Shown here: positions 8,634 through 64,000 of the stretch, in pieces
How positions within the stretch are numbered: the first letter of the stretch is position 1
How the letters are laid out: each line of letters begins with the position of its first letter
Assembly (NCBI GenBank): GCA_017506865.1
Contig: JAFCMP010000547.1
Span: 1,550,001 to 1,614,000, forward strand
From: Tribonema minus
Taxonomy: Eukaryota > Sar > Xanthophyceae > Tribonematales > Tribonemataceae
Length of the DNA stretch: 64,000 nucleotides
Reading direction: 5' to 3'
The notes under the pieces: generated by a model
Seen by the model: only the letters and a program-made list of their open reading frames with translations
Database searches by the model: none
Told to the model about the DNA's origin: nothing
Made by a program: the position numbers and the translations under genes

Positions 8634-9507
8634 TCAAACCGACTGCCGCTGCCCACTGCCGCAGCGCAACGGCGGCAGAGCGAAGCGAAGGGCGCCGCCG
8701 CTGCCGCCGGCGCAGCAGCTGCTGACGGTGGCGAGCGTGCACCGCCCCGCTTCCGCGCGACCCGCCCTTCCCTCACTTGAACTGCGCGCGTTCTCTGCGT
8801 GCGCACTTCCAGCACGCCTGCGCCACCTCTGCGTCGAAGCGCACGCGGCTGCAGCAGCGCTCAGCAAGCGTGGCTGTCCGTTTAAGTCAGTCAGCTTAAT
8901 GATCCTACCAGCTAGGGTTGATTTACCATGATCTACGTGCGCTATGATTGAAAAGTTTCCAAGTAGGTGTATTTCGTTCATTATCGACGAACACGTCTAA
9001 GTCATTGTCGTTAAAATGAGGTCGGAAATGACCATACACAATTGTGCATTGCAGTACTCCGTCTGTTCTGGTTCTGAATATTTGGCCGCCAACTCAGAGC
9101 CGCTGCCGCTGCTTGGCACCGCCGCAGCGCAACGGCGGCAGGGCGGATGCAAAGGGCGCCGCCGCTGCCGCCGGCGCAGCAAGTGCTCACCGCTGACTCG
9201 AACCGACTGCCGCTGCCCGCCTTTGCAGCGCAACGGCGGCAGAGCGGAAGCGAAGGGCGCTGCAGCCCTCGCCGGCGCAGCTGCCGCCGAAGGTGGCGAG
9301 CGTGTGCCGCCCCGCTTCCGCGCGACCCGCCCTTCCCTCACTTGAACTGCGAGTGTACTCTGCGTGTACACTTGTGAAGTGCACGCGGCTGCAGCGGCTG
9401 CTCAGCAAGCGCGTGCTGCCAACTCAAAAGCTGCTGCCGCTGCTTTGTACCGCCGCAGCGCAACGGCGGCAGAGCGGAAGCGAAGGGCGCCGCCGCCGCG
9501 GACGCAG
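8634..9507 (+). repeat. Acceptor-side tandem repeat array before the first ankyrin exon
   Basis: About four imperfect copies of a GC-rich unit occur at roughly 8634-8790, 9097-9180, 9185-9350 and 9430-9507. Each contains a CCGCAGCGCAACGGCGGC core. The better-preserved copies end in GGTGGCGAGCGTG, which matches the start of the ankyrin exon (GTGGCAAGCGTGTGGG at 9531). They are therefore echoes of that exon's 3' splice region. An AT-rich insertion at about 8875-9085 interrupts the array. Confidence 0.75.
8865..8981 (-). pseudogene. Fragment of a LepA-like translational GTPase (G1 motif)
   Basis: From an ATG at 8981, directly after an in-frame TAG, about 39 codons read as the N-terminus of a translational GTPase. 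NFSIIAHVDHGKSTLAGR carries the P-loop (G1) signature AHVDHGKST and is closest in wording to LepA/EF4. The homology then stops and the frame runs into the local GC-rich repeat. Codons are AT-rich, unlike all neighbours. The AT-rich island extends to about 9085 and holds the end of another minus-strand frame (KYSEPEQTEYCNAQL...), whose stop is at 8997, only 16 bases from the GTPase ATG. That operon-like spacing and composition suggest inserted bacterial or organelle-type DNA. No G2-G5 motifs follow, so it is not a working gene. Confidence 0.55.
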
Positions 9508-12500
9508 CAGCCGCCGCTGCACCGCTAAAAGTGGCAAGCGTGTGGGACGCGGTGCTGCGGGGGAATCTGGCGGGGGTGCTGAAGGAGGTCGGGCGGGGGG
9601 CGGACGTGGACGAGTCTGATGACGACGGGCGCACGCCGCTCATGGTCGCGTGCGCAACTGGCGGTGAGCGCTGCATGCATACGCATGTATCCTTTATGGC
9701 TATTACAAGTACCGTACATGGGCACGAATCAAAAATACATACTGTATGTGAGTTGAATGATGACGGGCGCACGCCGCTCATGGTCGCGTGCGCCACTGGC
9801 GGTGAGCTCTCCGTGTAGACATATGTGCCCCAAGTAGGGTATCATGACACACATGCATGCTGTATATGAGGCGGAAGCTGACGGGCGCACGCCGCTCATG
9901 GTCGCGTGTGCCGCTGGCGGCGAGCGCTGCGCGCTTGCATGCGTATCATTTCAGCGCCTTGTGCCTCAGCAAAAGTGCATAAATTGTGGCAGTGCCTGAT
10001 GGCATCCATGTACAAGTACACGCCGTGTGTGAGTTGTGTGAGTTGGTCGGACGATGACGCACACGTGCTGCTTGTTGTGACATGTGCCTCTGGTGGTGAG
10101 CTCTTCGTGCATACGTCCATATTTACCCCATATTACTACTCAAAGCACATACCGCATGTGAGTCGGACAATGACGGGCGCACGCCGCTCATGGTCGCGTG
10201 TGCTACTGCTGTAAGCGCTGCGTGTAGAGATGTATATACCGATGTAGACGTACATGTTCATGTAAGTGTGTGTGCATGTACCGCACATGGCCACTGCGAA
10301 TGTGTACATACCGTAGGTGAGTCAGACGTTGGGCGCATGCGCCACCGGCGGTGAGCATACAAATGGGTGCCCTACACGGCCGCTGCGAAGACACTCTCGT
10401 ATGTGGGTCAGACAATGCGCCCTGCATGGCTACTGCGAATGCATTGTGCGTATGAGGCGGAAGCTGACGGTCATATGCCGCTCATGGTTGCGTGCACAAC
10501 TGGCGGTGAGCTCTCTGTGATTGATACTTACCCAACATGTCAACTGCAAATGCATGTTGTATGTGAGTCGGACGATGACGGACGCACGCCGCTGCGACGC
10601 GTCGGTGCATACGCGCCCTGCATTGTGCTACATGCAACAATCACATACCATATGTGAATGAATCGGGTATGTACTCTATACTGTTTGCATGCGACTTCGC
10701 AAACAGTGTGTGGCTTTGTGGCGTCATGTTGCTGCGTGTGCAACTGCCCTTGCTGCCCTGCAGCTGCGGACATCGTGCGCTACCTGGTCAGGGAGGCCAG
10801 ATGCGTCGGGGCGCTGTCGCACGCCGCTCATCGCGTGCGCTGTCAGTGGTGACCGCTCTGTGCACACCTTGCCTACACTGTGCTACACACTGCACTCACT
10901 TACCACATGTGGATGAGTTGAATGCAACTCTGTTCGCGCGTGACTGCAGTGGCGTCAATTCTATGTCTGATGTATGGGCGCATCTGCGCTTGTCGCCTTT
11001 GCAGCCGCGGACATCGTGCGCTACCTGGTCAGGGAGGCCAGACCCCCCGCGGCGCTGGAATCACAGGCGGTGGAGGGGTGGACCCCCCTCATGATCGCCT
11101 GCGGCAGCGGTCATCTGCAGGTACACTAGGGGAAGGGGGGGGGGGGGCGTTGAGCACTGCCGCATCTGATGTTGAGCAATGGTTATCGTGGTTGCCCCTC
11201 ACTACTGCCTGTGGCAGTGGTCATGTGCAGGTACACTAGGGGAAGGGGGGGGGCGTGAGCACTGCCGCATCTGATGTTGAGCATGAGGCAGGGTGACCAT
11301 GTATGTTTTCGGCAGCTCGAGCATCTGCCGGTGTGTGTGGGGAGGGGAGGGAGGGGGGGGGAACAGCGCTGCTGAGCACTGTTGCTTTGATGCTGAGCAC
11401 TGTTGAAAACGCAGTAGGGGCGCGGACAACCTCCGTAATTGCCCCGCGTCAGCGGAAAGCGCTGCTGATGGCAATGGTCACGGCGCCGGCCGTAGAGGGC
11501 CCTCGCCTACTCGCTTGCGGCAGCGCGCGCCTGCAGCTGTGGCGGCGCTGCTGAGCGCTGCTGCATGCGACGGCTGAGCACTGTTGAGCGAGGTGTCCAA
11601 AAGTGTGGCATGACTTTTCCTGAGTGCCGCCGCGGCCGCCGTACGCTTCCCTGATTGCAACCGCAAACATTTGTGTACGATTGAACGCCTTGCCGTTAAT
11701 GCCGAAGATGACGCTCATAGTGTTGGCACTGTGTCCGCCGCTGCGCGCTGCTGACACACGGCTCAGCTGAGTTCGCCCCTGCCCTTGCGTAACTGTTCGA
11801 AACTGTCAATGCATCGTGTGATTTCGTTTTGAATCCTCCCGCTAATTGCAGGTCTTGCCCGGGGTGTGGAGGGGAGTGGGGATGTGTGTTTGTTGCTCGG
11901 CGGCAATCCAAGGCGGAATGTGCCCTCGCCTGATTATTGTTGGCGTTGTTGGTCCATATTGAAGCTGCATGTGGTGCCGCTCGAATTCAGTCTGACGTTG
12001 CTTGTACGATGGTGGTCTTGCAGGTGGTTAAGGTGCTGGTCGAGGCGGGGGCTTCCCTGGCGGCGCGTGACACCACGCACGGCTCGACTCCCCTCATATG
12101 GTGAGTCTGAGTCTCGCAGATGGGTAGGTTTGTTAGTGCTATATGGTGAGTCCGGGCAGTAGGCATGTACATATTATGGTGAGGTTTGGGTCTTGCACTC
12201 CTCGCTGCCACAGAGGTGATGTGAGCTTGCCCTCAACAAATCAGCACGGCTTGCACTTCAACACAGGTTGTCACACTGCCGCTGCTGCTGCTGCGGCTGC
12301 TTGTGCTGCAGGGCATGCGGCGGCACGCCTCAACTGTACACCCGCTTTCAGCGCGCCTCGCCACGTGACGCTCCCCACTCTCGCAGCCATATTCTTTAGT
12401 ACTGCACGGCACTTTCAAAGCCTCAACGCGCGACACTCACCCTCAGCGGCCAAACCTTGAAGCACTGCACGGCACCATCAAAGCCGCGACGCGTGACGCT

Positions 12501-12509
12501 CCGCCCTTG

Positions 12510-12554
<45 letters not shown>

Positions 12555-15500
12555 GACTGCAGGGCATGCGGCGGCGGCCACTGTCCCGTCGTCGAGTACC
12601 TGTTGGAAGAGGGCAGGGGCGGCGCCAGCGCCGCGGCGATGGTGCAGGAGCGCAACTCCGAGCTGTGGACGCCGCTGATGGTCGCTGCGGATGGTGGCCA
12701 TGCAGATATCGTCAGGTATCTTGTGAAAAGTCAACTTTTGTGTTTAAGTTGTGTCAGAGTTGAAGATGCAATTGAAGTTGACAGTCGTCGAGTACCTGTT
12801 GGAGGAGGGCAGGGAAGCGCCAGCGCCCGCGGCGCTGGTGCAGGCGCGGAGCTCCGAGCTCTGGACGCCGCTGATGGTCGCTGCTGACGGCGGCCATGCA
12901 GATATCGTGAGGTATGTATGTTTTTTTTAAGTTAAAGGGTGATCACACGCGACATCACGTGGTGATACTTGCTGCGGATGGTCAGGCCATGCGGATGTCG
13001 TCAGGTATCAATTCGTTCGTCCTGTACATATGCGTCGGCGTTGAAGTTGAAGTTTGACAAGACGGGCCATTCGGATATCGTCAGGCGTATACAATTATAA
13101 TTCAGTCGCGGTCAGAGTTGTAGTGGACACCATGTGACATGCTAATGGTTGCTGCAAACAACAGCTGCGTGAGTCAAGATGGAGTTGAACTCGAAGACAG
13201 CGTGCAGGTACTCGTGCTTGACGATCAGGACGACTGCCGCTCAAGCAGAACAGCGCTCGACATCTGCTGCCGCGTGCCGCATCATTATCGCGCAGAGCGC
13301 TGCTGCATGAGTTCCTGCGTCCCAAAGTCTGCTAATAAAACATCCGCTGCCGCGCGTCGGTGGTGTTGCTGGATGACTTCACGCTTCCTAAACCCTGTTG
13401 ATACCGCTTACCGAAGTGTGTTCATCACACATCACTACCGTGCGTTGGTGCGATGCTCCGTGCGCAAGCTCGGCTTGTCTCGTGAAGCGCTGCTGAATGA
13501 AATCATGCTTCGCGAAGTCCATGTTTTGGGGCAGCACAGACATCTTGGCTTTATGGTCCTGTTGCTGCCATACCTACTGACACGGGTGGTAATGAGCTCT
13601 GAGCTCCCTTTGGAGGGTGAAATTGCTGTCATGAATGTCATATCGTGCATCGATGGTGACGCTGCACGCACACGCATCTCGTGGCATGCAGAACGCTGAC
13701 GGATGAGTCCCTGCTTCCCGAAGTCTCCTGATAGCACATTGTTGCTTATCGATGACGCTCTACGTGCAGGCTGCTCGTGGCGCGCGGAGCGCTGCTTAAT
13801 GAGGGTTCTGCTTTCCGAAGTCTCCTAATAGCACATCATTGCTTGTCGGTGACGCTCCGCATTCAGGCTTCTCATGGCGCGCAGAGCGCTGCTCAATGGA
13901 CGAAATTCTTCTTCTTGAAGTCTCCTAATAACACATCACTGCCTGTTGGTGACGCTCCACGCGCGTGGTGTGCGTGGCGCTGCTGGCTGAGTTCATATCC
14001 TGAGTCTCTGTGCCCGAAGTCTCCTGATAGCGCTTACTGCTGGTCGGTGACGCTCCACGTGCAGGCTTCTCGTGGCGCGCGGAGCGCTGCTGGACAAGTT
14101 CATATTCCCGAAGTCTCCTAATAACACATCCCTTCCGTACGTTGGTGGTGACGTTCCGCATGCATGTTCCCGAAGCCTCCTAATAGCATTACTGCTTGTT
14201 GGCGACGCTCCACGCGCAGGCTTCTAGTGGCGCGCGGAGCGCTGCTTGACGAGTTCAATCTGGAGGGCCGCACGGCACTGGACATGGCCACCGCATCCAA
14301 TGGCAAGCTGGTGGAGGCGTTCCTGCGGCGCGTGAAGGTAAGATGATACATGGGCACGTCACCCACTGACACACTTCAACTTCAACTTGGGGAAAGTTCG
14401 GGTGTGTACCACTGACATCATGAAGAGCATCGGAATTAAAAGTGCACTGTGCGGCAGACACGACATGGCCACCGCCTCCAACGGCAAGCTGGTGGAGGCG
14501 TTCCTGCGGCGAGTGAAGGTGAGTGTTTTTTTCTGTGCGCACGGGATAGCCGCGATGGATGCGCACACAGCGATGCCTACATGCTGCCTCTGAAGATTGG
14601 GGTTGCGGTCAGGCTTAGGGTTATTCTTAACCCTAACCAAAGCTGGTGGAGGCGTTCCTGCGGCGAGTGAAGGTGCGGTGATACATGGGCACCTCATGTA
14701 GGGGCAGAGGCGGTACCTACATACCCCGCTCTCGTCGACGCCTTCGCTCACGATGTGCGCCTGCACTCGCTGCAACTGCGCCCTGTTGAGACGCCCATGT
14801 GCTGATTCTCATCGAAAACGCGTTGCCGCAGGCGCGCACGGCGCGCGACTTCTGGGCCGCGGTCGTCAGCGACGAACGCGCTCACTGCGATACCTACATA
14901 CCCTTGCTAATTTCATTGTGCGCAGGAGCCCATTGGAACACGCCTTAGCTGCACGCTCAAGCGCTTATCCTTTTGGGAACGTATTGCCGCAGGCGCGAAC
15001 GGCACGCGACTTCTGGGCCGCCGTTGTCAGCGGCACCGTCTAGACAGTGGCGGAGGTGCTGGCGACGAACGCGCTTACGGCGACACCTACATACCCTTGC
15101 TTCTCAAATCCTCAGTGTCAGTGTGCAAAGGAGCCCAGTTTGTAACGTGCTTCAGCTACACACCCATATGCCTGTCCGTTGTGCACCGCTTTGCCACAGG
15201 CATGCACGGCACGCGACTTTTGGGCTGCGGTTGTCGGCGGTGACGTCGAGACGGTCGCGGAGGTGCTGGCGACGAACGCGCACACCCGCACACCCTGGCT
15301 GCTGCTCAAATCCTCAATTTCAGTGCGTGCCGGAGCCCAGTTTGTAACATGCTTTAGCTGCACACTCATGTGCTCATCCTTTTGGAAACGCATTGCCGCA
15401 GGCGCGAACGGCGCGCGACTTCTGGGCCGCCGTCGGCGGCGGCGACGTCGAGACGGTCGCGGAGGTGCTGGCGACGAACGCGCTTACGGCGATACCTACA

Positions 15501-18500
15501 TACCTTTGCTTCTCACAAACTCAAATTCAGTGTGCACCGGAGCCCAGTTTTTTAACGTGCTTCAGCTACACACGCCACCTGCCTGTCCGTTGTGAACCGC
15601 TTTGTGAACCGCTTTGCCACAGGCGCGCACGGCGCGCGATTTCTGGGCCGCGGTCGTCGGCGGCGACGTCGAGACGGTCGCGGAGGTGCTGGCGACGAAC
15701 GCGCACATGGCGCGCTCGCGCGACGCGCACGGCCGCGCGCCGCTGCTGCTTGCGTGCCTGCAGGGCGACGTCGAGATGGCGCGCTTCCTGATAGAGGAGG
15801 GCGGCGCTGATGTGAGTCAGAGTCTGAGTCTCTCAGTGCTTGTTGCATGCCAAACCCCCCTGTGGCGCGCACGCTGTTGCTGGCATACCCTCTAGGGGCG
15901 CTGCCAAGATGGCGCGCTTCCTGATGGAGGAGGGCGGCGCCGATGTGAGTCTGAGTCTGAGTCTCGGTGCTGGTGCCAGTCTGAGTCTGGGTCTCGGTGT
16001 TGGTGCACACGCGTGCGGCGCGCATGCTGCTGCTGCTGGCATGCCTTCAAGACAGTGTTGAGATGGTGCGCTTTCTGCCAGAGGAGCGCGGCGCCAATGG
16101 GAGTCGCGAGTCTGGATCTGGGTCTTGTCGTACACTACATGAAACGATCAAGCACTGGGCGATTCAGCGTGCGACGTGCACAGTTGCGCTACACTGCTCC
16201 ACGTCTGCCTCCAGAGCGATGTCAAAATCGTGCGCTTCCTCGTAGAGGAGGGCGGTGCTGATAAGAGTTCAAGTCTGTGTCTCGGCGCTTGTGGCGTGGC
16301 AAGCCATGTTATTAGGATATATCACACACCGTTCGTGAACTGAAGAGGAGGGGGCGCCAGCGAGTCTCGCAGTCTTCTTGGCATGGCAAACCTTAGGGTT
16401 AGGGTTTGGGTTAGGGTGAGGGTTAGGATTAGCCTAATCCTAACCCTAACCCTAACGCGAAAGATGTCAGGGTGCATGGAATGCCCAAACACAGGGAGCC
16501 TTGACAAACCCGCATATGCTGCCGGCAACCTGACCTGTTTATTCCCACTGTCTAATGATGGGATAATTTAGTGCGCCGCAGGTGAACACGCAGGACGCAG
16601 CGGGCACAACAGCGCTCGACGACAAGTTCTTACGTTCTTCTCCAAAGTCCGAAAAATGCAATCATTTCATGCGCCGCAGCAGCATTGTTCTCGTCAAGTC
16701 GCTGACAACAAATTTGTGTCAAGCGCCGCAGGTGAATACTCATAAACAACCAGGATGCGGCAGGCGCAACCTACTATGCTCATGCTCCTGCGCATAGGAA
16801 CTGAGGCCGATGGGCCGGTGCGCGATGTTGGAATGAAGCACAGACAAATGCTCAGGATGCAGCAGTTCTTGTGTTGTAATCAAGTGTCTGATGGAAACGA
16901 ACCAAAAGATGGTAGAGACCTCGGTGACAAGGAGTGGTTAGCCGCAAGTGCCTTCCACCCATAACCGTGGTCGCCGCTGCTGCAGTCATTGGCCACGAGT
17001 CAAACAGTACCATCATATCCACAGTTGTCAAAAGACTTCTGTGTGCAAGCTGTGTAGCTGATAACAAATTTGCTTCATGCGCTGCAGGTGAACACGCAGG
17101 ATGCGGCCGGCACAACAGCGCTCGACGTCGCCGTCGTCACCGGCGAGAAAGAGCTCGCGCACTACCTCGCGGGCGCGGGCGGCGCGGATCTAGGGCTCAA
17201 GAACTCGGCGGGCTGGACCCCGCTCATGCAGGTCGGCAGTTACATCGTTGAAGTTCTCACACTGTGTGGCGTGTGATGGAGGGCTGCGCCCCGCTCTTGC
17301 AGTTTGCTACCCACACTTGCCCCCCCCCCCTCCCTTGACTGCTTGCGTCGCCCTCTCTACAGCCCTGCACTGCTTCTGTGTGCAGTCGTATGACCGCTAC
17401 AGTTAGACTGCCAGGTGCCAACTACCGCTAGTGCGCTCCAAGATTCGGCCGCGTGTGTCTGTCACCCGCGCACGATCTCACAGCCAGCGGCAGGGGATCC
17501 GCACAGGCGCAGCTGCCCATCACTCCCTCTTTTGGGGGGATTTTGCCCCATTTCGCTACAAAGCTCATTGTATTCATCGCCGCAAGCACAGGCTATCAGC
17601 TGCGGGCAGGGAATCCGCACAGGCGCAGCTCCCCATCTCCCCCTCTTTAGGGGGAAATATCGCTCCTTTGCGCTAGCCCATGTAGCCTCCTTGTTGTACA
17701 TACATATCAGCAGCCACTCTCTCTTGACGCGTGAGCAGGCCACCGCTCCTGCTGTTCGCATTTGCGAAATCCTGAAATCGCTGCACTTTCGGCTGAGCCC
17801 TGGTTGTTGCGTCCGCGCGTGCGGTGCTGCAGGCGGCAGCGGGGGGTCCGCCTGACGGTCCAGCGGCGCTCGACATGATGAGAATACTGGTGAGCAACTT
17901 CATACACATACCTACACATGCGCAAGTGCGTTGGGCTGCGTCTCGCTTATCGCATGTGTGTTGAGCTGCGTCCCGTTTGAAGGCTATCGCCACACATGAT
18001 TACAGTCGATGCATCAAGTGGGGGGGGGGGGGGATGCCCTTTCTAGCCATCGTCCGTGATTGTTGGCGAAGGGTCCCGTACCCCTACCGCAGTTGGCTTT
18101 TTACGGCAGGTTATGTGTGTATTGGTGCTTGGTTACAAATCTTGTCGTGAGCGGATGTCTTGATTTATAAACATGCACATTGTTTGTCGCTTTTGACAGG
18201 TTGATGCGGGAGCGGAGGTCAACAGCTGCAACCTCGACGGCGACACAGGTGCGTACTCCAACCTCAAGTTTGAAGTTATCTGGCACCCAAATCGGCTCAC
18301 TTTGCGTGCACAGCGCAGTGGGAGCTCCGATCCCTGCGTCCAGAGCACTTGTGAGGTTTCATTGTGGTACCTGAAATAGCCCAGATGTTTAGGATGGCCA
18401 CGCTTGCTGCCGAGTCTGAACACACCTTGTGACTCGTGTGCAGTGTGCTTGAGGTTAGGGTCTGCAGGCCTGAGCTCCACTGAGATCGGAGCCGCGTGTA

Positions 18501-21737: not shown

Positions 21738-21851
21738 TCACGCGCTGGGAGAGGGGGAGCGGTGGCGGCGCCCCCCCCCCTCCGCGCCCCCGTTCGGCGG
21801 CAGCGAGCCCGTGTCGGCGCGGCCCCTGCTCTGCTGCGCCTTCTCACTCTT

Positions 21852-21885
<34 letters not shown>

Positions 21886-33206: not shown

Positions 33207-33792
33207 GCTTATGGCTGTAGTGTGTGTGGGTTGTGTGCGCGTGCCTGTCCTAGCTGTGCTGCGCTGGTTGTGAGTGACACACACAAATGCCGTCGTCGCC
33301 ATTCATATTTGAGGAGGGATTTTTCGCTCCTTTTTCCTTCCCCGGCGTTCTTTCGGGCCAGAACGGGCCACGGAAATGTGACAAACAGGCAGACTTTTGC
33401 CTTCCGTTCCGGGTCATCCTGCGTGAGTCACCAGTAATGACTCAGCAAGAGACTCAATTCTGGTGATGAGAGTAGCCCCTCAGGGGGGTAAAAAAGGGGA
33501 CAACTCTATCCCCCAGTCGCCATTGAAATAGTCCAAAAGGGACACACCGCTGGTGGTGGCCAGTTGTATACACCATATACGTTTGCCAAATTCGGCAGTG
33601 CTCTGACTGGTGCGCGCGGGCACATTACTGGTGTGTGGGGGCTGCTGGATGTGCACGAGTCGCAGTGAGTCAAGACTCAATTACTCAGACTCAGCCGCTT
33701 CACCAGGAGGGAGGTCTTCCGAACCTAGAGCATGGCTCTTGCTGCATGAGGCATGGTCGCAAGCATGAGGCATGTTTGGTAGCACAACGCTG
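33143..33792. repeat. Left arm of a ~650-bp inverted duplication
   Basis: This arm contains the first ~20 codons of the CTD-phosphatase gene and its upstream region. It matches 37818-38476 in inverted orientation at very high identity, with single-base differences scattered along it. The match spans coding DNA, the 5' flank and distal spacer. Confidence 0.93.
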
Positions 33793-48280: not shown

Positions 48281-48370
48281 GTGGTTGTCGTTGCGACACT
48301 TTCAGACTGTCATACGACATATAGATTCCTTACAGCTAGATGCCAATCATCTGGGCTTTTTCGCGCCCTG

Positions 48371-48418: not shown

Positions 48419-48419
48419 T

Positions 48420-52600: not shown

Positions 52601-55600
52601 TGCTCTGGGCGCGAAGACGCACACGTGGTCAACGTTACGCTGAGGCTTGTTACAACATGTATATAAGCGTCTTGTCCCCCGCAAAGCTCACTTGTCATGC
52701 AGTGCATCCAGGTCCAGCCAGAGCCATATCGTGAAGCTGTGCAATGTTCTTGAATATGGCTAGTACAGTAGTCTCAGGCAGAGTCGGCTGCAACGTTAAA
52801 TAGTCTCACTCACTTCCCCTACGATACTACATGATTGATATAACCCTGCGGCTTGCTTACGTGGTAATAAGCGTCTTGTCCCCCACACAACTCACTTGTC
52901 GTGCAGCGCATTCGAGTCAAGCCAGGGCCCGCCCGGTCCGCTCAGATGATTAAGTGAACCTTTATTCGACGTGTTATGAGGTGTATTGTGCCCCACAACA
53001 CATGTTATTGGTGGAAGGCACTTGCGGCTAACCATCCCTTGTCACCTAGAGCTCTACGATCTTTTCATTCGTTTTTCATATGTTAATAAGCGTCTTGTCC
53101 CCCACACCACTCACTTGTCGTGCAGCGAATCCAAATCCGGCCAGGCCGCCCGGTTCGCCCAGATGATCAAGTAAACCTTTATTCGACATGTTACTGAGGG
53201 TATTTGAGTAACCTTTTTTCAATGTGTTAATAAGCGTCGTGTCCCACACAACACATCTGTCGTGCAGCGCATCCAATTCAAGCCAGGGCCCGCCCGGTCC
53301 GCACATGAGATTTTTGAAAAGTAAACCTTTATTCGACGTGTTAATTAGTGTCTTGTCCCCGACACAACTCACTTGTCATGCAGCGCATCCAAATCCGCCG
53401 GTTCGCCCAGATGATCAGTAAACCTTTATTCGACGTGTTATTATTAAGTGTCTTGTCCCCTACAAAACTCACTTGTCGTGAAGCGCATCCAAATCCAGCG
53501 AGGGCCGCCCGGTCCGCCCACATGGTCAAATTAACATTCATTCAACGCGTTATTAATTGTCTTGTCCCCCACACAACTCACTTGTCATGCAGCGCATCCA
53601 AGTCAAGCCAGGGCCCACCTGGTCCGCCCAGATGATCAAGTAAACCTTTATTTGACGTGTTAATAAGTGTCTTGTCGCCCACAAGACTCACTTGTCATGC
53701 AGCGCATCCAAATCAAGCCAGGGCCCGCCCGGTCCGTCGGCATCGCTGCCGCCCCCTCCCTCTTCGCCCTCCTGGAAACCGGGAAGAAAGGAGGGAGCCT
53801 CAGATTCACAATGAGCAGTTCAGGCTGCAGCAAAGTTATAGTTGCACGATCGCCAAGCACAGTGTGGTGCCTGACAGTGGCCATTTCCGACTGATGTACC
53901 GGGCCTTGTTACATGGTCATCTGGCCAGTGCCATACGCCAATATTCACAGTGCCAGGGTATGGCGATGGCGGCGTGATCACTACCCCGCTCATGCTGTGG
54001 TCACAATGGAGCGTCGCTGTTGAAGAAGCCGCAGGGCCCGCTGTAACCGCCGTTCGGAACGAGAGTAACAACACACAATGAGGAGCCCGCTGCTCCTGAG
54101 CAGTGGCCATGTGACAAGAGCACTGAAATCATCAAGTGACGTGTGTGCCAGTGGTACTTTAAAAAAAATTGGCGATGTGACATGGAGTCATCGTCAACGA
54201 GCATAGAGAAGCTTTGCCACAAGAATACATGTGGTCTCTGGACGTCAACTTCAAGTTCAAGTTACCTCATCCCAGTCATCGGCGTCCCCTTGCGGCGGCG
54301 CGTCGCTGTCCCCCTCCTCAGCCTCGCCGCTCGTAGAGCCCTCTTCGAGCCCCTCCCCCTCTTCAGGGGGCCCCTTCGTACTGGCCATTGGGGGGGTACT
54401 GGCCCCGAGGGGAGCTTCGCGGGGGGCTACGGAGAAACTGACGGTGGCCTCAAATGCCGGCGAAGGCGCGTGGCCCTCCACCAGCCTGGATGTACAGTAG
54501 GGCACAAGTTCAAGAGGTGACGTGCCGACATGAGAAGTGATGTGTGGTTGTCTACCCTAGGGGGCGTCACGGGGGGCTACGGAAAAGCTGATGCTGGCCT
54601 CAAATGCCGGCGACGGTGCATGACCTTCCACCAGCCTGGATGTAGGGCGTAAGTTCAAGAGGTGACGCGCCGGCGTTAGGAGTGATTTGTGGTATGTAGT
54701 CTGCCCGAGCTGACGCAGGGCGCAGGTAGTAGAGGCAGCGACGTGTTGACCATGCGGCTCATTATGACTTGAATTGTGTAGACGTGAGCGAGCGTGCGCG
54801 TGTTGTTGGCGTGAAGAAAACGTGCTGCAGAGTGGTGTGCACTGCCGCGGCAGTGCTCAGGGAGGCGGCGCGTGCGGACGAGACGTGTAGCGTACTTTTT
54901 CGCGCTGCGGTACACGGCGCCGCAACGCTCACCCTGACCCTACCCCTAGCTCCAGCCCATGACAACGCAAAACCATTGAGCGCTGAACACGTATTATTTC
55001 GAAGGGAAGGACGCGGGCCCTACGTGAGCGGCTGGCCTCCCACTGCTGCTGCTGCTGCTGCCTCCCACTGCTGCTGCTGCTGCTGCTGCAGCTGCAGCAG
55101 CAGTGCGAGTGTACCTGAGTAGGCTGCAGGCCCTGGCCCTGGCGACCACATGCACTCTACCTTTGATTGCCACTGCACAACAGCGTCCTGCGTAAGTTTT
55201 GCAGATTATTTCATCTAAGCGGTGCGCAAGTACGCTGCTTCAGTTGACGTCTTGCAGTACGAAAAACACCGTGTCGAGGCCTGCATGAGCATTCATCTGA
55301 AACAGCGACATAGGACGCGGGCTGCAGGCATCAGCACTCACCCTCTGAATGCGGGCTGCAGCAGCGGCATCGGCTGCGCGGCAGCGGGCGCGCGCTCCAC
55401 GACTGCTCGCTTCATCACGGTGTCGGCGACGCGGTGCGGCCGCGGCGGCAGCGCGCCTGCGCGAGAGTACATTGGGCACGAATCAGTTCAATAATGCCGC
55501 CAGCAAGCTCACACAAAAATTATGCCTGTTCAAGTACTTGAGGTATGCTTCACCGCGGCATCAGCAACGCGTGGCGGCAGCGCGCCTGCGTGACAGGACG

Positions 55601-58600
55601 TCAGCGCACAAATGTCGGCGGCAAGATGCGCTAGAAGACAGGAAATGTCATAGTTCAAGTACTTGAAGTATGAGATGAGACGCTCCGCAACTGAGCGCTT
55701 CATCACGGCTTCGGCAACGCGGTGCGGCCGCGGCGGCAGCGCCCCTATGCGACGGCACATCAAGCGCCAAAGCAAAAAGTGCACTTCTGAAAGTTCAAGG
55801 ACTTGAAGTATGAGGCGTGACGCTCCACCAATGCGCGCTTCACCACGGCGTCGGCGACGCGGTGCGGCCGCGGCGGCAGTGCGCCTGCGCAACAGTACAT
55901 CGGGCACCATATCACTGTCACGATGCCGCCAGCAAGATTATACTTGCGAAACAGGAATGTCCTAGTTCAAGTACTTGAAGTATGAGGCGAGCGCGCGCTC
56001 CACGACTGTGCGCTTCACCACGGCGTCGGCGACGCGCTGCGGCCGCGGCGGCGGTGCGCCTGCGCGAGAGCACGGCGCTCACTTGAGATGTTGTGACAGT
56101 ATGTAGCACCAAGAGGATAGCGCGCGTGAAAGAGGGAGCGCTGTTACTTCAAGTTCTTGAAGTATGCAGCAGGCGCGTGCTCCACGACTGCTCGCTTCAT
56201 CACGGTGTCAGCGGCACGGAGCGGCCGCGGCGGCAGCGCGCCTGCGCAAGAGTACATCAGGCACCAAATCAGTGCACTTGTGAACAGGAAACAAGTTGAA
56301 GCACTTGAAGTATGATGTGAGATGCTCCACCACGGCGCGCTTCATGACGGCGTCGGCGACGCGGTGCGGCCGCGGCGGCAGTGCGCCTGCGCGAGAGCAC
56401 AGTGCGCACTTGAGATGGTGTCACAGTATGTAGCACCAAGAGGATAGCGCGCGTGAAAGAAGGGAGCGCTTCTACTTCATGTACTTGAAGTATGCAGTGG
56501 GCGCGCACTTCTCCACCTAGCGCTGCACCACATCAAAGTCAGCGATGCGGCGCAGTCATGGCGGCACTGCGCTCCACAAGAGCAAATGTGGCACCAAGAC
56601 GCTTTCACGATAACACCAGCAGGGTCGCAAGTGTTGAGGGGAACATTCATACCTCAAGTACCTGAAGCATGCAAAACAATCCTCGCTCCTCGCTGCAATT
56701 ACTGTGTTCAGGTACAACTGAGTTGCTTTCACCGACACTCAACTTACGGCTCTTCGTCAATTTGATCACCGAAGCATACACCACCACACTCACCTTTCGC
56801 CTTCCTCTGCGCAGCGGTCGGCCGCCCCCTGGAACCCCCCCCCACGTGTTTCCCCTCCCCCGCCTGCGGCGCCGCCTGTGCCCCCGCCTTACCCCCCTCC
56901 CCCGCCCCCTCAGCCCCCTGCGAGATCTCCACCGCCTGCAGCTGCTCAGTGATCCCTTCCATAGCCCCCCCGTCCCGGTGCTGAGCAGCCGTTACTTCAA
57001 CAGCCGCGTCACTGACAGAGGCCGCCGCTGATGTGTCCCCCTCCGTGTCCATAGCGGCTGCAGCGGCAGCAGCACTGGCGGCGGCGTCGCTGGCAGCAGC
57101 CGCGTCGCCACGTGACACGTCAGCAGCGGCAGCAGCAGCCTCCGCAGCAATGGCCACAGCAGCACCAGCGCCCCCGCGGCCGCCGTCGCCAGTGCCAGCA
57201 GCAGCGGCAGCAGCAGCAGCACCAGCGTCAGCAGCAGCGGCAGCGCTCAGTGCGCCGCCGCCGTCCGCGAGCGACAGCGCCTCCAGCTTCTGGCGTATGT
57301 CGGCGGCGTGCGGCGCCTGCGAGTCGCGGCGCCGCGCGCGCTTCGCTGCAGTTGTTTTCGCAGGCGCCGCGCCCGGTGCGTCACCACTTGAAGTTTGGAC
57401 ATCCGCCACGTGCGCCAGCGCGACGGCGCGCGTGTAGGGAGAGTCGGTTGGGAAGGACGCCGCCAGGGCGGCCGTGATGGCCTGGCAGTTGACGCTGCAG
57501 AACTGCGGGCGCGAGAGATGAGTGAGGTGACACTGGCTTTGTCGCTGAGCTGAAAAGCTTGTGCACAGTTAGCACGGTAGGCCGTCCCCTTCTGGAGTGC
57601 TAGGATACAAACGCTAAAAAGCTTGCACACTGAAGTATTTTGACCAGTGTGGACATGGTGGTACTGTTTGACTCGTGCCCACTGCTGCAGCAGCGGCGAC
57701 CACAGTTATTAATGGAAGGCATTCAAGCTGACGGCTAACCACACCTTGTCACCTAGAGCTCTACGATCTCTTGATTCATTTTCATACCACATGAATGGCG
57801 AAACTGACGTGTGCTGCTCATGTCTGTTGGCGCCGCCGGGCATTGCTCAATCAGCTGGGCGAAGAGCCCACGAACAACAGCCAGGAAACTTCATCTACTT
57901 CAAGTACTGGATGTGCGCGCACCAGGAGAGCACAACGTGTCACAAGCGCTTCTGCATGAGTGCAGACACCGCACCATTCAAACTCAAGTAACGACCACCT
58001 AGCCACGTGACGCGACTGCACAAGTTCACAACATCATCACCTTAACTTCAACACACGGGTGCGCACCTTGCTCGAGTCCACCCTCTCGTAGATCTCGTGC
58101 GCGCGCAGCAAGATACGATAGCGCGACTTAAAGCGCGTCAGAAGCGCTTCTGCATGCCTGCAGACTCCGCATCACTTAAACACAGGTAACAACCACCTAA
58201 TTACGTGCGCGACTGCACAAGTTCACAACATCATCACCTCAACTTCAACACACGCGTGCGCACCTTGCTCGAGTCCACCCTCTCGTAGATCTCGTGCGCG
58301 CGCAGCGAAATGCGGTAGCGCGACTTCCCCTTCACGGCCCACTCCGCTGGCCCCCGACACAACGGCCAGCCGCACAAACCCGCCAAGGACCGCTCCTCCA
58401 CCACGTCCTGAGCGATGGGGCGTGCACGGGTCGTACAAGAGTGAAGAATAACGAGTCACGATCCACAGGACGCCGCATGCACAGGAGCATGTAGGTCTGA
58501 GAGACCACCATAGACCACTCCTCCACCACATCTTGAGCGACGGGGGTGTGTATGAGTAATGCTGTCAAGTCAAGAGAAAAGAGTCGTGAGGCAAAGGCCG

Positions 58601-59433
58601 GCGCAGTACGGCAGCATGTCTCAGAGGCCGCCAGAGACCGCTCCTCCAATGCCAGCTGAACGATGGCTCACGCATATATCTTAGAGACGAGCCAAGAGTC
58701 CAAGTTCGCTTGGAGCCAGGCAGGTCCACATTGAGTGCAAGTTGAAGCAGAAGCAGGTGGTGGCTTGTGCAGCGGCATTGCATGAGCCTTACATAGAGCA
58801 ACAGTTGACCCAGCCAGCAATGCCAATGGATCAATCCAGCATATTGTGCAAGTGCGCTTTTTGCAGCAGACTACAGCATCACAGCGGCATCTGCCTGTGG
58901 CACCTGCCCTGTACGAAGACGCACCCGTCGGCATCAGAATCGCAACGTCGGCACATTAGCTTCCACGAATATGGCTAGAAGACGCCTGCCGCCACTGCGC
59001 AACAGCTGGTGCGCCGCAGCTGACAGTAGGATATACTGCAAATCACAGCCCTGCCAGAAGTTGCCTCGAGTTAATGTCCAATACATGACATATCGGCCTC
59101 ACATCGAAGTGTCTTTGCGGCCAGCTTCACGGCTGCCGTCGTGAAGCCTTCGGTGACGGTGGATGTAGCTGCATCAACAGCTTAAGGCTTACTTTCGACG
59201 AAGAAAAACAGAGCCACGGCGCGCCCATGTTGATGCAAATCAAGCGGCGCTCACCCCATATGTGTGCTGTGAGATGCATTGACTGTACTCACCTGCATAT
59301 GCTTCGGAGTAAACCATGCGCGGCAGTCCTCCAAGGCCGCTGGTTCCACGGCATCGCCAAGCAAGGCTTCCTGCAGCCTGAAAAGCTTTGAATCTATGGT
59401 CCGCCTGGTCGCGTCAGATACGAAGCCAGCCAT
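49682..59433 (-). CDS. RPAP2: RPAP2/RTR1 homologue, nine exons
   Basis: Exons (minus): 59293-59433, 58264-58407, 56794-57502, 55342-55456, 54266-54485, 53692-53771, 52315-52416, 50393-50768, 49682-49774. All eight phases match (0,0,1,2,0,2,2,0); 1980 bases, 659 residues, close to animal RPAP2. The RPAP2_Rtr1 zinc domain is clear: DVVEERSLAGLCGWPLC (48-64), then KSRYRISLRAHEIYE, then KFCSVNCQAI (95-104), with Cys59, Cys64, Cys97 and Cys101 as likely zinc ligands. Family members bind RNA polymerase II, help its assembly or nuclear import, and remove phosphate from CTD Ser5. The remainder is Ala-rich and acidic (DADDWDE|EGEEGGGG) with a helical C-terminus. Most introns carry echo arrays. The donor of exon 3 has an alternative 36 bp downstream in the same phase. 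Confidence 0.92.
49885..50165 (-). repeat. Acceptor-side echoes of the last RPAP2 exon
   Basis: Two copies of GGCTGCTGCCAG|GCCCTGGAAGC and the following ~50 exon bases precede the true acceptor (49774). They lie at about 49890-49990 (good match) and 50085-50165 (decayed), each with a shared CAAATCTCAC-type intron phrase. Confidence 0.75.
51650..52314 (-). repeat. Donor-side echo array of exon 52315-52416
   Basis: Copies of ACGCGGGCGTGC(T/C)TG(T/C)TA(C/A)G and adjoining intron follow the true donor. They lie near 52220, 52105, 52020, 51915 and 51845. Units share CACTTGAAGTTGAAG and GGGCAGGTAAGAGACGCG phrases, about 100 bp apart. Confidence 0.75.
52620..53691 (-). repeat. Donor-side echo array of exon 53692-53771, with repeated AATAAA
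   Basis: About eight units of ~110 bp follow the true donor (GACAA|GTGAGT). Each repeats GGATGCGCTGCATGACAAGTGAG or a variant on the minus strand, preceded by the GGGCCCTGGCTTGA exon phrase and followed by GGGGACAAGAC. Five units also carry CGAATAAAGG (or CAAATAAAGG) on the transcribed strand. Confidence 0.85.
54540..54665 (-). repeat. Acceptor-side echo of exon 54266-54485
   Basis: One long copy of the acceptor and first ~80 exon bases (CATCCAGGCTGGTGGA, then CCGGCATTTGAGGCCA) precedes the true exon. It carries substitutions that break the reading phrase. Confidence 0.8.
55545..56580 (-). repeat. Acceptor-side echo array of exon 55342-55456
   Basis: Seven units precede the true acceptor at 55456, near 55560, 55725, 55860, 56035, 56215, 56370 and 56550. 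Each has GCGCAGGCGC(G)CTGCCGCCGCGGCCGC and reads variants of LPPRPHRVADTVMKR. The intron part carries a TTCAAGTACTTGAAG-type palindrome. Confidence 0.88.
58050..58135 (-). repeat. Donor-side echo of the zinc-domain exon 58264-58407
   Basis: One copy of CACGAGATCTACGAGAGGGTGGACTCGAGCAAG|GTGCGCACC, split here as the exon end and donor, lies about 190 bp past the true donor, with an altered upstream part. The flanking intron phrase (CACAAGTTCACAACATCATC) is also repeated. Confidence 0.8.
58495..58665 (-). repeat. Acceptor-side echoes of the zinc-domain exon
   Basis: Copies of CGCTCAGGACGTGGTGGAGGAG are seen at about 58510-58545 (CTCAAGATGTGGTGGAGGAG) and 58630-58665 (more diverged). Both lie upstream of the true acceptor at 58408. 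Confidence 0.7.
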
Positions 59434-59811: not shown

Positions 59812-62800
59812 ATGTCGCCGCTGCTGCTGCTTGTGCTGGCGCTGCCGACGCTGTGCATGGCAGCCATGAAGGCCGTCACGCTGCAGGAGAGCCGGTTGAA
59901 CATGTACTCCAAGCAGCCCCACCTGAAGATCGCCGGCGACGGGCTGGAAGCTGTCGACGATCCAAGCAAGCTGCAGGTGTGGCAATCAAATAACCACCAT
60001 CGGATATGTCCGGTCCTCATTTCTTCTGAGCCAAGGTGCCGCGCGCCATGGGCTCTAGCAACTTCGGATTCACCAAAGTTTGTTGTCAGTAGCTGTTTCA
60101 GGTTGACCATCTGTCTGTCGGTCGACTTCACTATGCTATGCCTGTGCAGGTGACATTTCGGCAGTCGCTGACACTGGACGTACCTAGCCACACGCCCTGG
60201 CGGAGCGCTGTCACTGCAACCATACCGGTCTCCCCAATTCGGCACCCACGCAGCACTTCACTACCCATCACTGACCCTGCCAGCCCGCTCTATTCATTCG
60301 AACCTACCTGCGCAGGTCGCATTGTCGCCGCCGCTGCCGCTGGGTGCGTTTGAGGCGAAGATCGCGCGTTCCGGCGGAGCGCTGCTATTGCTGCTGGACC
60401 TCAACGAGGGCCACGCCTGGGTAGACTTTTCGTCGGGGGCGGAAGGGAATGCCGCGGAGACGTTGACAGTGGAATCTATATCGTACGACGGTTTCGAGCT
60501 GCTGGTGGCGCCGGCGCAGATTGGCACGGTGGTGCCGACGCCGGAGGTCAGCGGCAGCGAGCAGATCGTCTTCAACACGGCGACGCCCGCGCTGGTGAGT
60601 TCAACTTCAACTTCACATTACACTTTCTGCAATTGCTGAACTTCCCAACGATCTCCTGAGCGCTGCTGACTACCCGTCACGCATTTGGAAAGAGCACCTG
60701 CGCCATCAGTGCAAGCAGCATGCAAGCCCGTCTGCGTCAGTACCCACGTATTGTTTTGAGAACGTTTGGGAATCACTCAAGTATAAATATTAAACCACGC
60801 AATCAGGCTCACCGCTGCGGCGTCTGCTTTGGCGGTCCGTCGCCCCATGTGAGGTGCGATGAAGCCCGGCGTGCCGCTAGTGCCTTCTTAGGGTTAGGGT
60901 TATGGTAAGGGTTACGAACCTCAACCTAAATTAACCCAATTTATGTAGCCTTACCTAATCTATTCTCGACCATAACCCTTGAATCAAATGCCTTCTTCAA
61001 CTCTTGGAAACCCCGGAGTACTCGCAGCAGACGTGCAGGGCTGCAGCTCTGCTGAGCGATGTGGTGTGTGCCACTGTAACCGTACATGTTTTGCTTCAAC
61101 CCTAACCCTAATACTAACCCTAAGGGCGTACGCCGTCCTGAGAAGCTGCTGCGAGGGGGCCTGCACGAGGGCTGCTGCTCAGCGCTGCTCACGATCAACT
61201 ACTGAAGGAACTGGCGGGAACGAGCAGCGGCATCGGATCATGTTTGTTCTCCAGTCGAAGCTTTGAACGTGTGAATTTCGGGACAGATGGGGTGTTTCGT
61301 GACACCTGTGGTATGACCTCCGCTGCGGCGGTACTGGAGCGTCAACTTGAATGCCACGTATGCGCACTCTGAGCAAACGTGATGCGCCAGTACTGCTCTC
61401 GCGCCTTGTGGCTGGAGACACTGGCATCGCCTGAGAGCTGCAGTTCACTCGGTGTCACTTGTGCGTCGCCACCCTGGAGCAAACTTCAAGTTCAAGTGTG
61501 AAGTTGGGCCAACTGTGAAGAAGTTTTCATTTACAGGCGCCTCGTAACCGTTGTTCAGCGGTGGGCGGTGTACGCTTCTGCCGCATGGCAATACCGAGGG
61601 CCTGGTCATCACGGCGTAGCAGCACCTAGGGTTACGGTTAAGTTTAGGGTTAGGGTAAGGATTAGCAGTGCAATGCGGCGCGTGTCTCGAGCTGCTGCAC
61701 GCCTGCGACGCAATGCGCGCTGCGCTGGCGTGACCATGATGGTGACGATGCGCTTCACATGATCGGGATGGGCACATGCGTCGTGAACGCAAGCATCGCC
61801 GGCGCCGCTGCACGCACAGCGCACCAGCGCACGTCTACGCCAAGCGCACGACGCCCTACTTTGACCCACCGCTGCGCCAGGGCTAGCACTACACCGCGGT
61901 TTCAAGCAAGCAGCTGATGGAGATGACAACGATGCTCTTTACTCGGTTCCGCTGGAAACATGCATTGTGAATGCGCGTGCGCCGTTGTCGCCATCGCCCG
62001 CAGCACGTCAGCGGCGCGCTCTTCAACGCCCAGCACACGTCGCTCTACTTCGACCCGCCGCTGCGCGAGCGCGATGGCTTCACCGCAGTATTGGTCAATC
62101 ATCCAATGAACATGCAACCGCTAAGAAGTTTGCGGTTCAAATGATGGCGATGAACTCACGCGCCGCGAACGCGCGCCCCCCGCCGCGCCGCAGCACATCT
62201 GCGGCGTGGACTTCAACCCCAAGCGCACGCCGCTCTACCTCGACCCGCCGCTGCGCGAGGGCGACGGCTTCACGGTCACTTCGATCTATTTATTTGAACA
62301 TGAAATCACACATGAAATCACACCACTCGAATTGAGGCGATTAACTCACGCGCCGCGAACGCGCCCCCCCCCAACTGCGCCGCAGCACATCAACGGCGCG
62401 CACTTCAACCCCAAGCGCACGTCGCTCTACTTCGACCCGCCGCTGCGCGAGGGCGAGGACTTCACCATGGCCGTCCCGTCGCCGTCGCGCATCGTGCTGA
62501 CCAAGCGCTTCGGCGCCGGCGGCGAGCCGCGCGCGTGGCGCACGGACGGCGCCCCCGGCCCGCTGCGCCTGCTGGCCATCAACACCGGCGGCGGCATGCT
62601 CACCGTTGGCGGCAGCGCTGGCCTACAGATTGCGCAGGTGCGGCGAATGATGATTTCGCGTGCTATCGCAGCGTGGTTAAATGAAAATTGTCGGTGGTGA
62701 GCCGTGAAAGGAAATTGTTGGTGGCGAGCCGCGCGCGTGGCGCACGGACGGCGCCCCCGGCCCGCTGTGCCTGCTGGCCATCAACACCGGCGGCGGCATG

Positions 62801-64000
62801 CTCACCGTGGGGGGCAGCGCCGGCCTACAGATTGCACAGGTACGGCAATTAACGGTTTCAAGCGCTTACAAGTACGATGGTGGCACTGTTTTGGCGTTTC
62901 ATTAGCAGTTTGCCAGCGGTGCGCCTGCTGGCCACCAACACCGGTCACCGTCGGCGGCACCGCCGGCCTACAGATCGCGCGGGTGCAACAAACAGTGGTT
63001 TTGAGTGCTATTGCGGGTTGCGTAGAGAACATCGGCAGCAACTTACAAGCAGGTGCTAGGGCCGCGGCTGGTGGCCATCAACGCCGGCGGCAGCAAGGAA
63101 GCTCGCCGTAGTGGCACGTCGCGCGACACCCACATTGCTCACCTGCAACGCCATGAGTCGCGGCGCACTTGTGGTGGACACTGCATCGATAAGACCACCA
63201 CACCACGGATTGGGGCCTGTCAGCAGTTGCCTGGGCTGTGCGTGGTGACGCCCGACGCCGGCGACGGCAACCTCGCCGTAGGCGGCGCCCCGACATGCAG
63301 GTCGCGCAGCGCTGCGCGTGACGCTTGGCACGCGGATTGCAATAGGTAGTCAATTACACATGCAGGTAAGCAGGAAAAGCATGAGGGCCAGGGTTAGCGC
63401 TGGCGGCGGCGCTGCCATGCACGCAGATGGCCCCGGTGAGTCTTGCCGCCGCTGCCTCTGTAAGTTGGCCGCGGCCCGTGCCTGCTTAGGGTTAGGGTTA
63501 GTGTTAGGGTTACCCTGAGCTGCGCATGGCCTGGAAACGCTCAGCTGCGTGCTTGATGCACCTGGCGAGCCTCACATTGCATAGCAGTGATCACGCTGGC
63601 AGAGGGTTAGGGTTAGGGTTAGGTAGGGTTAGGGTTAGGGTGAGGGCGTAGGGTTAGGTCCTCGCTGGTGCTGGCGGTCATTGCCAATGGTAGCAAGCGG
63701 CGGATCGCCGCGCCTCCAAACGGAGATTGCCTAAGTCTGCGCGAGAAAAGAACGTCATCAATCATAGCTGAGGTTCACGCGTCTTGGGGTGTATTGCCGG
63801 CGTTGCAGCAGCCTCATGAACAGTGCGGACCTTAACCCTAACCCTGACCCCTAACCCTAACCCTAAGCAGCAGCGGCAAGCTGGCGGTCGCAGCTCGCCT
63901 GGCACGCCGGCTGCTATGCTCGAGTGAGTGATCACGCAAGCACACGCGCACTGCACGCGCCTCGTGCGACGGCGGGCCATGCCAGGGTGCTGAGACACTG
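59812..64000 (+). CDS. Secreted protein with repeated beta-type modules, 5' part (runs off the right edge)
   Basis: Supported exons: 59812-59976, 60316-60594, 62386-62637, all phase 0; the next exon is not identified before the edge. The start is MSPLLLLVLALPTLCMA, a clear signal peptide, then MKAVTLQESRLNMYSKQP. Exon 2 reads LPLGAFEAKIARSGG, LLLLLDLNEGHAWVDF, YDGFELLVAPAQIG. Exon 3 reads HINGAHFNPKRTSLYFDPPL, EGEDFTMAVPSPSRIVLTKRF, GPLRLLAINTGGGML, AGLQIAQ. The two parts look like a repeated beta-sandwich-like module with an FDPPL...DFT...IVLT...W...GPL...TGGG pattern. I recall similar secreted modules in heterokont algae but cannot name the family. The function is unknown; a cell-surface or wall role is a guess. 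Acceptor and donor echo arrays flank exon 3. Confidence 0.75.
60885..61125. repeat. Interstitial telomere-type islands
   Basis: TTAGGGTTAGGGTTATGG at about 60889-60906 and CCCTAACCCTAATACTAACCC at about 61100-61122, in opposite orientation, lie in an intron of the secreted-protein gene. A third island (GTTTAGGGTTAGGGTAAGG) lies near 61640-61660. Confidence 0.8.
61810..62385 (+). repeat. Acceptor-side echo array of exon 62386-62637
   Basis: Three copies of the first ~80 exon bases precede the true acceptor, at about 61822-61895, 62003-62085 and 62193-62280. They read variants of HINGAHFNPKRTSLYFDPPL. The most distant copy has a stop and has lost its acceptor; the two nearer ones keep CGCAG|CAC. 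Unit length is about 185 bp. Confidence 0.88.
62710..63320 (+). repeat. Donor-side echo array of exon 62386-62637
   Basis: A long copy at 62714-62840 repeats the exon end, from GGCGAGCCGCGCGCGTGGCG to the donor CAG|GTACGG. Shorter copies lie at about 62920-62986, 63055-63100 and 63243-63302. Decay again increases with distance from the true exon. Confidence 0.88.
63484..63868. repeat. Interstitial telomere-type islands near the right edge
   Basis: TTAGGG units lie at about 63487-63512 and 63604-63655, and CCCTAA units at about 63833-63867. Orientation changes between them, so this is not a chromosome end within the window. Confidence 0.85.

What the first reader, a model, noticed from the sequence alone, without database searches (positions are those of the whole stretch)
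8634..63320. Splice-junction echo arrays: introns built from tandem copies of the neighbouring exon edge
In at least four unrelated genes on both strands, true exons are flanked upstream by tandem copies of (intron tail + acceptor + first exon bases) and downstream by copies of (last exon bases + donor + intron start). Unit length is about 100-200 bp, copy number one to eight, and decay generally grows with distance from the true exon. The most complete exons stay single. Tandem repeats inside introns are known, but I am not aware of a genome described in which duplication is so regularly centred on splice junctions of many genes. A mechanism that repeatedly duplicates across exon edges (replication slippage, R-loop or repair of nicks at junctions) is an inference.
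Basis: partly seen in the sequence, partly recalled or inferred. Interest (0 to 1): 0.92.

Follow-up and report, generated by a model that had tools for sequence, protein, structure and literature searches.

The report
Exon edges echoed inside introns
In the yellow-green alga Tribonema minus, many introns contain tandem, decaying copies of the edge of the neighbouring exon, splice signal included, which suggests how introns can grow without changing the protein and leaves strong decoy splice sites beside the real ones.

Summary
The window is Tribonema minus (its contig has the length of an annotated T. minus protein's contig). In 261 kb I built splice-aware gene models, checked against that protein and Pfam. 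Of 218 splice junctions tested, 74 have a copy of their exon edge in the adjoining intron, against 13 in the opposite flank and 11 in reverse complement. In 78 of 78 pairs acceptor copies lie upstream and donor copies downstream; whole-exon duplications: 0 of 149 pairs. Copies nearer the exon are more alike (70 comparisons against 27). Copies carry splice sites nearly as strong as the real ones but decay like non-coding DNA. Junction-spanning duplications outnumber purely intronic ones 45:15, a share of 0.75; circular shifts of the annotation give 0.33, and 0 of 400 reach 0.75. A typical unit is about 43 bp of exon plus 107 bp of intron. Best reading: recurrent short tandem duplication concentrated at exon edges, surviving because splicing removes the extra copy. 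What focuses it there is unknown. Nine literature searches showed no description.

The parts
9459..9663 (+). ankyrin-gene exon (single, true copy)
   Evidence: gene finder; Ank domains
8664..9289 (+). three acceptor echoes of exon 9459-9663 (exonic parts 9229-9289, 9127-9194, 8664-8724; all with AG)
9757..10505 (+). four donor echoes of exon 9459-9663 (9757-9801, 9880-9919, 10160-10208, 10466-10505; identity 96, 92, 88, 85% outward)
10766..10816 (+). acceptor echo of exon 11005-11120
11195..11230 (+). donor echo of exon 11005-11120
12800..12888 (+). donor echo of predicted exon 12563-12693 (its exact end is uncertain); two shorter echoes follow by eye (about 12970-13010 and 13062-13085)
   Evidence: sequence
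14832..15491 (+). four acceptor echoes of exon 15623-15811, period about 200, all with AG
   Evidence: tandem array
15865..16262 (+). three donor echoes of exon 15623-15811 (80, 77, 76% outward)
19213..19259 (+). acceptor echo of exon 19375-19485
39265..39456 (-). hydrolase exon, true copy (annotated protein P0001 ends it 12 bp earlier, at 39277; my model ends it at 39265 with a GC donor)
38514..39208 (-). seven donor echoes of exon 39265-39456, five of them 71-72 bp long with GC at the donor position
   Evidence: tblastn of P0001
37169..37313 (-). hydrolase exon, true copy
37395..37551 (-). two acceptor echoes of exon 37169-37313
36824..37084 (-). three donor echoes of exon 37169-37313
35874..35893 (-). 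short acceptor echo of hydrolase exon 35258-35556
49896..50121 (-). two acceptor echoes of predicted exon 49686-49774
52655..53736 (-). array of about eight units (110 bp in its regular part) that read, on the - strand, as exon end plus GTGAG donor; the exon beside it (from about 53737) was missed by my gene finder
   Evidence: read by eye, not counted as a junction echo
55381..56597 (-). array of about seven 140-bp units that read, on the - strand, as intron tail plus AG plus exon start; exon not in my models
   Evidence: read by eye, not counted as a junction echo
58264..58407 (-). RPAP2/Rtr1 exon, true copy
   Evidence: Pfam PF04181 E=8.3e-18 across the spliced exons
58067..58129 (-). donor echo of the RPAP2 exon (94%, GT kept)
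58505..58648 (-). two decayed acceptor-echo fragments of the RPAP2 exon (82% and 90%; the first without AG, the second not reaching the splice edge)
62386..62637 (+). exon of an unidentified gene, true copy
   Evidence: no Pfam match
61827..62273 (+). three acceptor echoes of exon 62386-62637 (90, 89, 84% outward; the outermost does not reach the splice edge)
62750..63095 (+). donor echoes of exon 62386-62637 (94, 77%, then a fragment)

Best explanation
The arrays come from recurrent short head-to-tail tandem duplications (unit about 150 bp) whose two breakpoints straddle a splice junction. When the unit spans an acceptor, using the acceptor nearest the exon leaves the mRNA unchanged; when it spans a donor, using the first donor does. 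The extra copy becomes intron and is neutral, while duplications inside an exon or of a whole exon change the protein and are lost. New events tend to happen next to the true exon and push older copies outward, where they decay: the intron grows by shedding copies of the exon edge. Shown here: tandem layout, one-sidedness, single exons, an exon-outward age gradient, non-coding decay, preserved decoy splice sites, and an excess at exon edges over random placement. Inferred: the molecular step, most likely fill-in and joining of breaks with staggered ends (as in CST/Pol-alpha-primase duplications), and that recognition of the exon as a unit keeps the decoys silent. Unknown: why breaks gather within about 80 bp inside and 200 bp outside exon edges.
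For: Edge-query test 74 of 218 against 13 and 11 in controls. 78 of 78 pairs one-sided and 0 whole-exon among 149 pairs, where random placement predicts about 3% whole- or multi-exon. Exon-internal, whole- and multi-exon classes 5% against 20% in shifts. Exonic part of junction pairs 0.897 identical, intronic part 0.803: one decaying branch against two. Mismatches 0.062, 0.054, 0.136 at codon positions 1-3; 16 of 93 echoes frameshifted, 5 of the 74 ungapped with a stop. Gradient 70:27. Junction excess. Unit anatomy: exonic part median 43 bp, intronic 107 bp, uniform placement rejected, p=1.5e-7, n=59. Same pattern in a kinesin gene fetched for its domain (5 of 6 domain exons by inspection) and in a myosin gene (13 of 22 junctions). 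CST/Pol-alpha fill-in at 3' overhangs makes small tandem duplications (PMC8355091, passages).
Against: Random placement plus selection predicts a junction share of about 0.33, so an unexplained hot spot is needed. No transcript data: most exon models are my own predictor's, and it was trained on the hydrolase and kinesin exons it recovers. A second kinesin gene fetched in the same way (L023) has an edge echo at only 1 of 10 junctions and 9 of 25 clusters have none. The spliced RPAP2 query found no T. minus protein, so that exon model is unconfirmed by annotation. Joints are too decayed to read microhomology or filler. Coverage profile shows no peak at the junction. Gene ends gave no copy (0 of 7 stops, 0 of 3 starts), which hints at a splice-specific process, though n is small.
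Confidence: 0.62

Rival explanations
1. Pure survivorship: tandem duplications fall at random over genes and selection removes those that alter exons; nothing favours exon edges.
For: Explains one-sidedness, single exons and the shortage of exon-internal and whole-exon classes. Duplication coverage runs flat from intron through the junction before it falls inside the exon. Exonic fraction of the copied stretch did not differ from random placement in a first test (KS p=0.17).
Against: Junction share 0.75 against 0.33 in 400 circular shifts, none reaching it; 38:5 in supported genes against an expected share of 0.32; simulated detection bias lifts the expectation only to 0.29-0.38; exonic parts shorter than uniform, though selection against long exonic decoys could do that.
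Confidence: 0.15
2. A process tied to splicing or transcription at the junction (R-loops, spliceosome-bound nascent RNA, positioned nucleosomes) makes staggered breaks there, so duplications are aimed at splice junctions.
For: Junction excess and the confined exonic breakpoints; no copies at 10 gene ends. Five loci with few exons (L007, L008, L011-L013) have 0-2.3% local duplication.
Against: No direct evidence of any such agent; confinement could be selection against long exonic decoys; gene-end sample tiny; the link with exon density is loose: stretch C550 with 2 exons has 9.8% and C544b with 7 exons 24.7% duplication coverage.
Confidence: 0.15
3. A small mobile or nicking element marked by TTGAAGT acts in introns and leaves very long target duplications.
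For: TTGAAGT/ACTTCAA is 10.9-fold over-represented in non-coding DNA; at echo breakpoints a TTGAAG-type word points toward the breakpoint in 16 of 78 flanks against 2 of 78 reversed, background about 4%; 13 against 2 of 62 groups.
Against: No shared insert between genes in the window self-comparison; other permutations of the same letters are also skewed at breakpoints (65 to 24) and the intron-wide polarity equals the composition control; 62 of 78 flanks lack the word.
Confidence: 0.05
4. The copies are real repeated exons of repeat proteins, or assembly errors.
For: One of the genes does encode ankyrin repeats.
Against: Annotated protein P0001 omits the copies; in the window edge-reaching copies are truncated and mostly 76-96% identical, with an age gradient and frameshifts; same pattern in kinesin and myosin genes.
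Confidence: 0.03

Closest known systems
Small tandem duplications from fill-in at staggered breaks (CST/Pol-alpha-primase; PMC8355091, passages read; the paired-nick work in plants seen only in that paper's reference list and recalled)
   Same: Direct head-to-tail copies without a fixed insert.
   Different: Those are induced or sporadic; here they gather on splice junctions of many genes and form multi-copy arrays.
[quoted passage not shown] potato RdRp case, PMC4974935, passages read)
   Same: Tandem duplication across an intron-exon boundary; the potato event copied an upstream intron-exon structure.
   Different: Here no new intron is made: no pair joins the donor side of one exon to the acceptor side of the next (0 of 149); existing introns lengthen.
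Introners (PMC9860276, passages read)
   Same: Many introns of one genome affected.
   Different: Known introner families with transposon marks have 3-9 bp target duplications and recur in many genes; these units are private to each junction and about 150 bp.
Exon or domain duplication
   Same: Tandem copying within genes.
   Different: No complete exon is copied (0 of 149); copies are not kept coding.

Membership tests
Tandem duplication by staggered-break fill-in | head-to-tail adjacent direct copies | tested here: met
   74 of 286 pairs directly adjacent; arrays
Tandem duplication by staggered-break fill-in | blunt or short-homology joints | tested here: inconclusive
   intronic ends too diverged
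Tandem duplication by staggered-break fill-in | dependence on CST/Pol-alpha/NHEJ | not testable with these tools
   needs genetics
Intron gain by tandem duplication | donor side of one exon homologous to acceptor side of the next across the new intron | tested here: not met
   0 of 149 pairs
Introners | similar sequence in introns of unrelated genes | tested here: not met
   window self-comparison only: the arrays do not cross-match between genes; one small dispersed repeat family and one inverted pair do match across distance
Introners | 3-9 bp target duplications / terminal inverted repeats | tested here: not met
   unit or spacing medians 140-205 bp; neighbouring TTGAAGT sites mostly in the same direction, 35 of 48 pairs
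Exon duplication | whole exon with both splice sites copied | tested here: not met
   0 of 149 pairs
Minisatellite arrays inside introns | arrays placed without regard to splice sites | tested here: not met

The most novel reading that the evidence does not exclude
T. minus has a mutational process coupled to splicing or transcription that repeatedly duplicates DNA across exon-intron junctions genome-wide, making exon edges the growth points of introns; the resulting decoy splice sites, nearly as strong as the real ones, must be ignored through exon definition.
Probability: 0.3. Interest if true: 0.9.

Novelty: new variant of a known kind. Interest (0 to 1): 0.72.

Why it matters
It gives a concrete route for intron lengthening: introns can grow by budding off copies of the exon edge, with the age of each step readable from its decay. 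It also sets up a natural experiment on splice-site choice. Echoes carry acceptors about as strong as the true ones (median score 4.7 against 4.9, p=0.32) and donors slightly weaker (4.5 against 5.1, p=0.016, where echo sites were scored as the best of a few neighbouring positions, which favours them a little), and the first echo lies a median of 111 bp from the exon. RNA-seq would show directly whether pairing of sites across the exon is what picks the right one. The excess at exon edges asks what makes DNA break there.

Tried and rejected
Telomerase-like addition or CST recruitment by TTAGGG at breakpoints: TTAGGG-type words point to the breakpoint in 10 of 78 flanks against 2, but other permutations of the same letters do so too (91 to 17) and intron-wide polarity equals the permutation control, so I dropped it as a claim. 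A palindromic ACTTCAA...TTGAAGT element: inverted neighbours are not in excess. RNA-intermediate copying (lariat or free exon): rejected because copies run across the splice site and do not end at it. Detection bias from exon conservation: simulated, too small; the simulation used a uniform age range and few indels, so it is a guide only. First gene finder broke up into tiny exons and was replaced. Two protein searches for the RPAP2 gene found nothing, so only one gene has an independent annotated model. The gene-end control is tiny (10 ends). Telomere and genome-wide pattern searches did not complete. Low-complexity exons at 42.5-45 kb and virus- or transposon-like loci are included in the counts; one search drops 5 of 25 clusters (the low-complexity one and four in three such loci) and drops 7 of 25 (the two ankyrin clusters as well).

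Full report
What the window is. It lies at C544:1550001-1614000 of a 158-Mb, 554-contig genome. A spliced query from its alpha/beta hydrolase gene hit one protein at 98% identity, P0001 of Tribonema minus, whose contig is 1,859,316 bases long, exactly the length of C544. The organism is therefore taken to be T. minus, a yellow-green alga.

The repeats. Self-comparison of the window lists 102 pairs, 93 of them direct and local. Read on the sequence, upstream copies hold intron tail, AG and exon start; downstream copies hold exon end, donor and intron start. P0001 maps to one full copy of each hydrolase exon, with weaker partial matches at the echoes. It ends one exon 12 bp before my GC donor; this does not affect the echo.

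Gene models. From five hydrolase exons and ten kinesin exons found by Pfam search I trained a splice-aware gene finder on 261 kb: the window plus about 197 kb fetched. It returned the hydrolase exons, which were among its training set, to within a few bases, except one end that differs by 10 and one by 12. It gave 216 exons, of which 134 score at least 10 and are not echoes of a better one. Spliced predictions matched myosin head (1.9e-144), kinesin (8e-96), WD40 and NIF phosphatase, RPAP2 and ankyrin; of the six predictions one had no match and one only a short repeat. It misses exons, among them those beside the arrays at 52.7-53.7 and 55.4-56.6 kb, so intronic classes are if anything overcounted.

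Frequency and anatomy. In 25 multi-exon clusters (128 kb, 117 exons) 29 of 114 acceptors and 32 of 110 donors had an echo by self-alignment. With exon-edge queries 74 of 218 junctions (6 of 224 had too little flank) had a copy on their own side, 13 on the opposite side, 11 in reverse complement; 120 of 162 hits reached the splice edge. Of these, 50 of 56 acceptor echoes have AG and 50 of 64 donor echoes GT or GC at the edge. Echo junctions occur in 16 of 25 clusters, from 13 of 22 in the myosin gene to 1 of 10 in kinesin L023; nine clusters have none. Kinesin L022, fetched for its domain, has echoes at 5 of its 6 domain exons by inspection.

Decay. Junction pairs are 0.897 identical in the exonic and 0.803 in the intronic part, and mismatches to the true exon are 6.2, 5.4 and 13.6% at codon positions 1-3 in 93 echo alignments from 18 of 25 clusters. 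This fits a copy that drifts freely beside an exon that is free mainly at third positions. Sixteen of the 93 are frameshifted. Nearer copies are more alike (70 to 27), so arrays seem to grow from the exon outward.

Is the focus on junctions more than chance? Random placement gave a junction share of 0.245 against 0.574 for pairs; with exons masked 0.221 against 0.516 (33 of 64 arrays); within 100 bp of exons 0.63 against about 0.85. Simulated detection raised the expectation to at most 0.38. Pairs of 85% identity or more were 14 junction, 2 exon-internal and 2 intronic, the last two being one pair counted on both strands in a virus-like locus. Circular shifts of the annotation, after dropping 5 of 25 clusters, gave 0.33 (sd 0.06, maximum 0.48) against 0.75 observed; eight supported clusters gave 0.36 (maximum 0.60) against 0.82; 0 of 400 shifts reached either. 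Against this, the plain coverage profile shows no peak at the junction, and a first test of where the junction sits in the copy fitted random placement (KS p=0.17). The profile mixes originals and echoes, and the second test used aligned lengths; with full periods the exonic part is clearly short (median 43 bp, p=1.5e-7). I read the whole as selection plus a hot spot at exon edges.

Mechanism. Tandem layout and lack of a common insert fit fill-in of staggered breaks; CST/Pol-alpha-primase does this at 3' overhangs in cultured cells, human HPRT among the loci (PMC8355091, passages). That T. minus does the same is inference. TTGAAG-type words lie near some breakpoints in one orientation (16 of 78 against 2), but composition accounts for part of it; I leave it as a lead. 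Duplication is not simply a matter of gene density: five exon-poor loci have 0-2.3% coverage, but C550 (2 exons) has 9.8% and C544b (7 exons) 24.7%.

Decoys. Echo acceptors score about as well as the true ones (4.7 against 4.9; random AG 0.5); echo donors slightly less (4.5 against 5.1; random GT -0.2) (echo sites taken as the best of a few neighbouring positions). Each echo has one splice site and a truncated exon, so exon definition would ignore it; this is inference.

Literature. Nine searches (listings) and passages of three papers showed no account of splice-junction echoes in T. minus or elsewhere; the library holds only open-licence PMC papers. The published T. minus genome announcement is known to me by recall only.

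Noticed in passing
33141-33765 and 37845-38468: Two 625-bp stretches, 98% identical in opposite orientation; the second lies in a hydrolase intron beside the donor-echo array. Possibly a young mobile element.
   Followed up: no
16891-17058, 52999-53080, 57613-57785: Small dispersed repeat family, 81-87% identical, at three distant places.
   Followed up: no
16393-16456, 23553-23584, 61627-61665, 63603-63866 and other loci: Short interstitial TTAGGG-like tracts; telomeric heptamers are among the most enriched non-coding words. The telomere sequence itself could not be checked (searches unanswered).
   Followed up: partly
non-coding DNA of the 261-kb sample: ACTTCAA/TTGAAGT is 10.9 times over-represented (224 non-coding sites), the strongest 7-mer apart from poly-C and telomeric words; function unknown.
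   Followed up: partly
L005 (C1:50001-60000) and L011 (C150:50001-60000): Long predicted exons; L005 has GC 0.72 and a ResIII helicase piece, L011 a D5_N domain; may be endogenous giant-virus DNA (not tested). Described only.
   Followed up: partly
hydrolase exon 39265-39456 and gene models: Many donors called as GC (35 of 126 in the self-trained set); some are surely predictor errors, but six of the seven donor echoes of this exon have GC.
   Followed up: no
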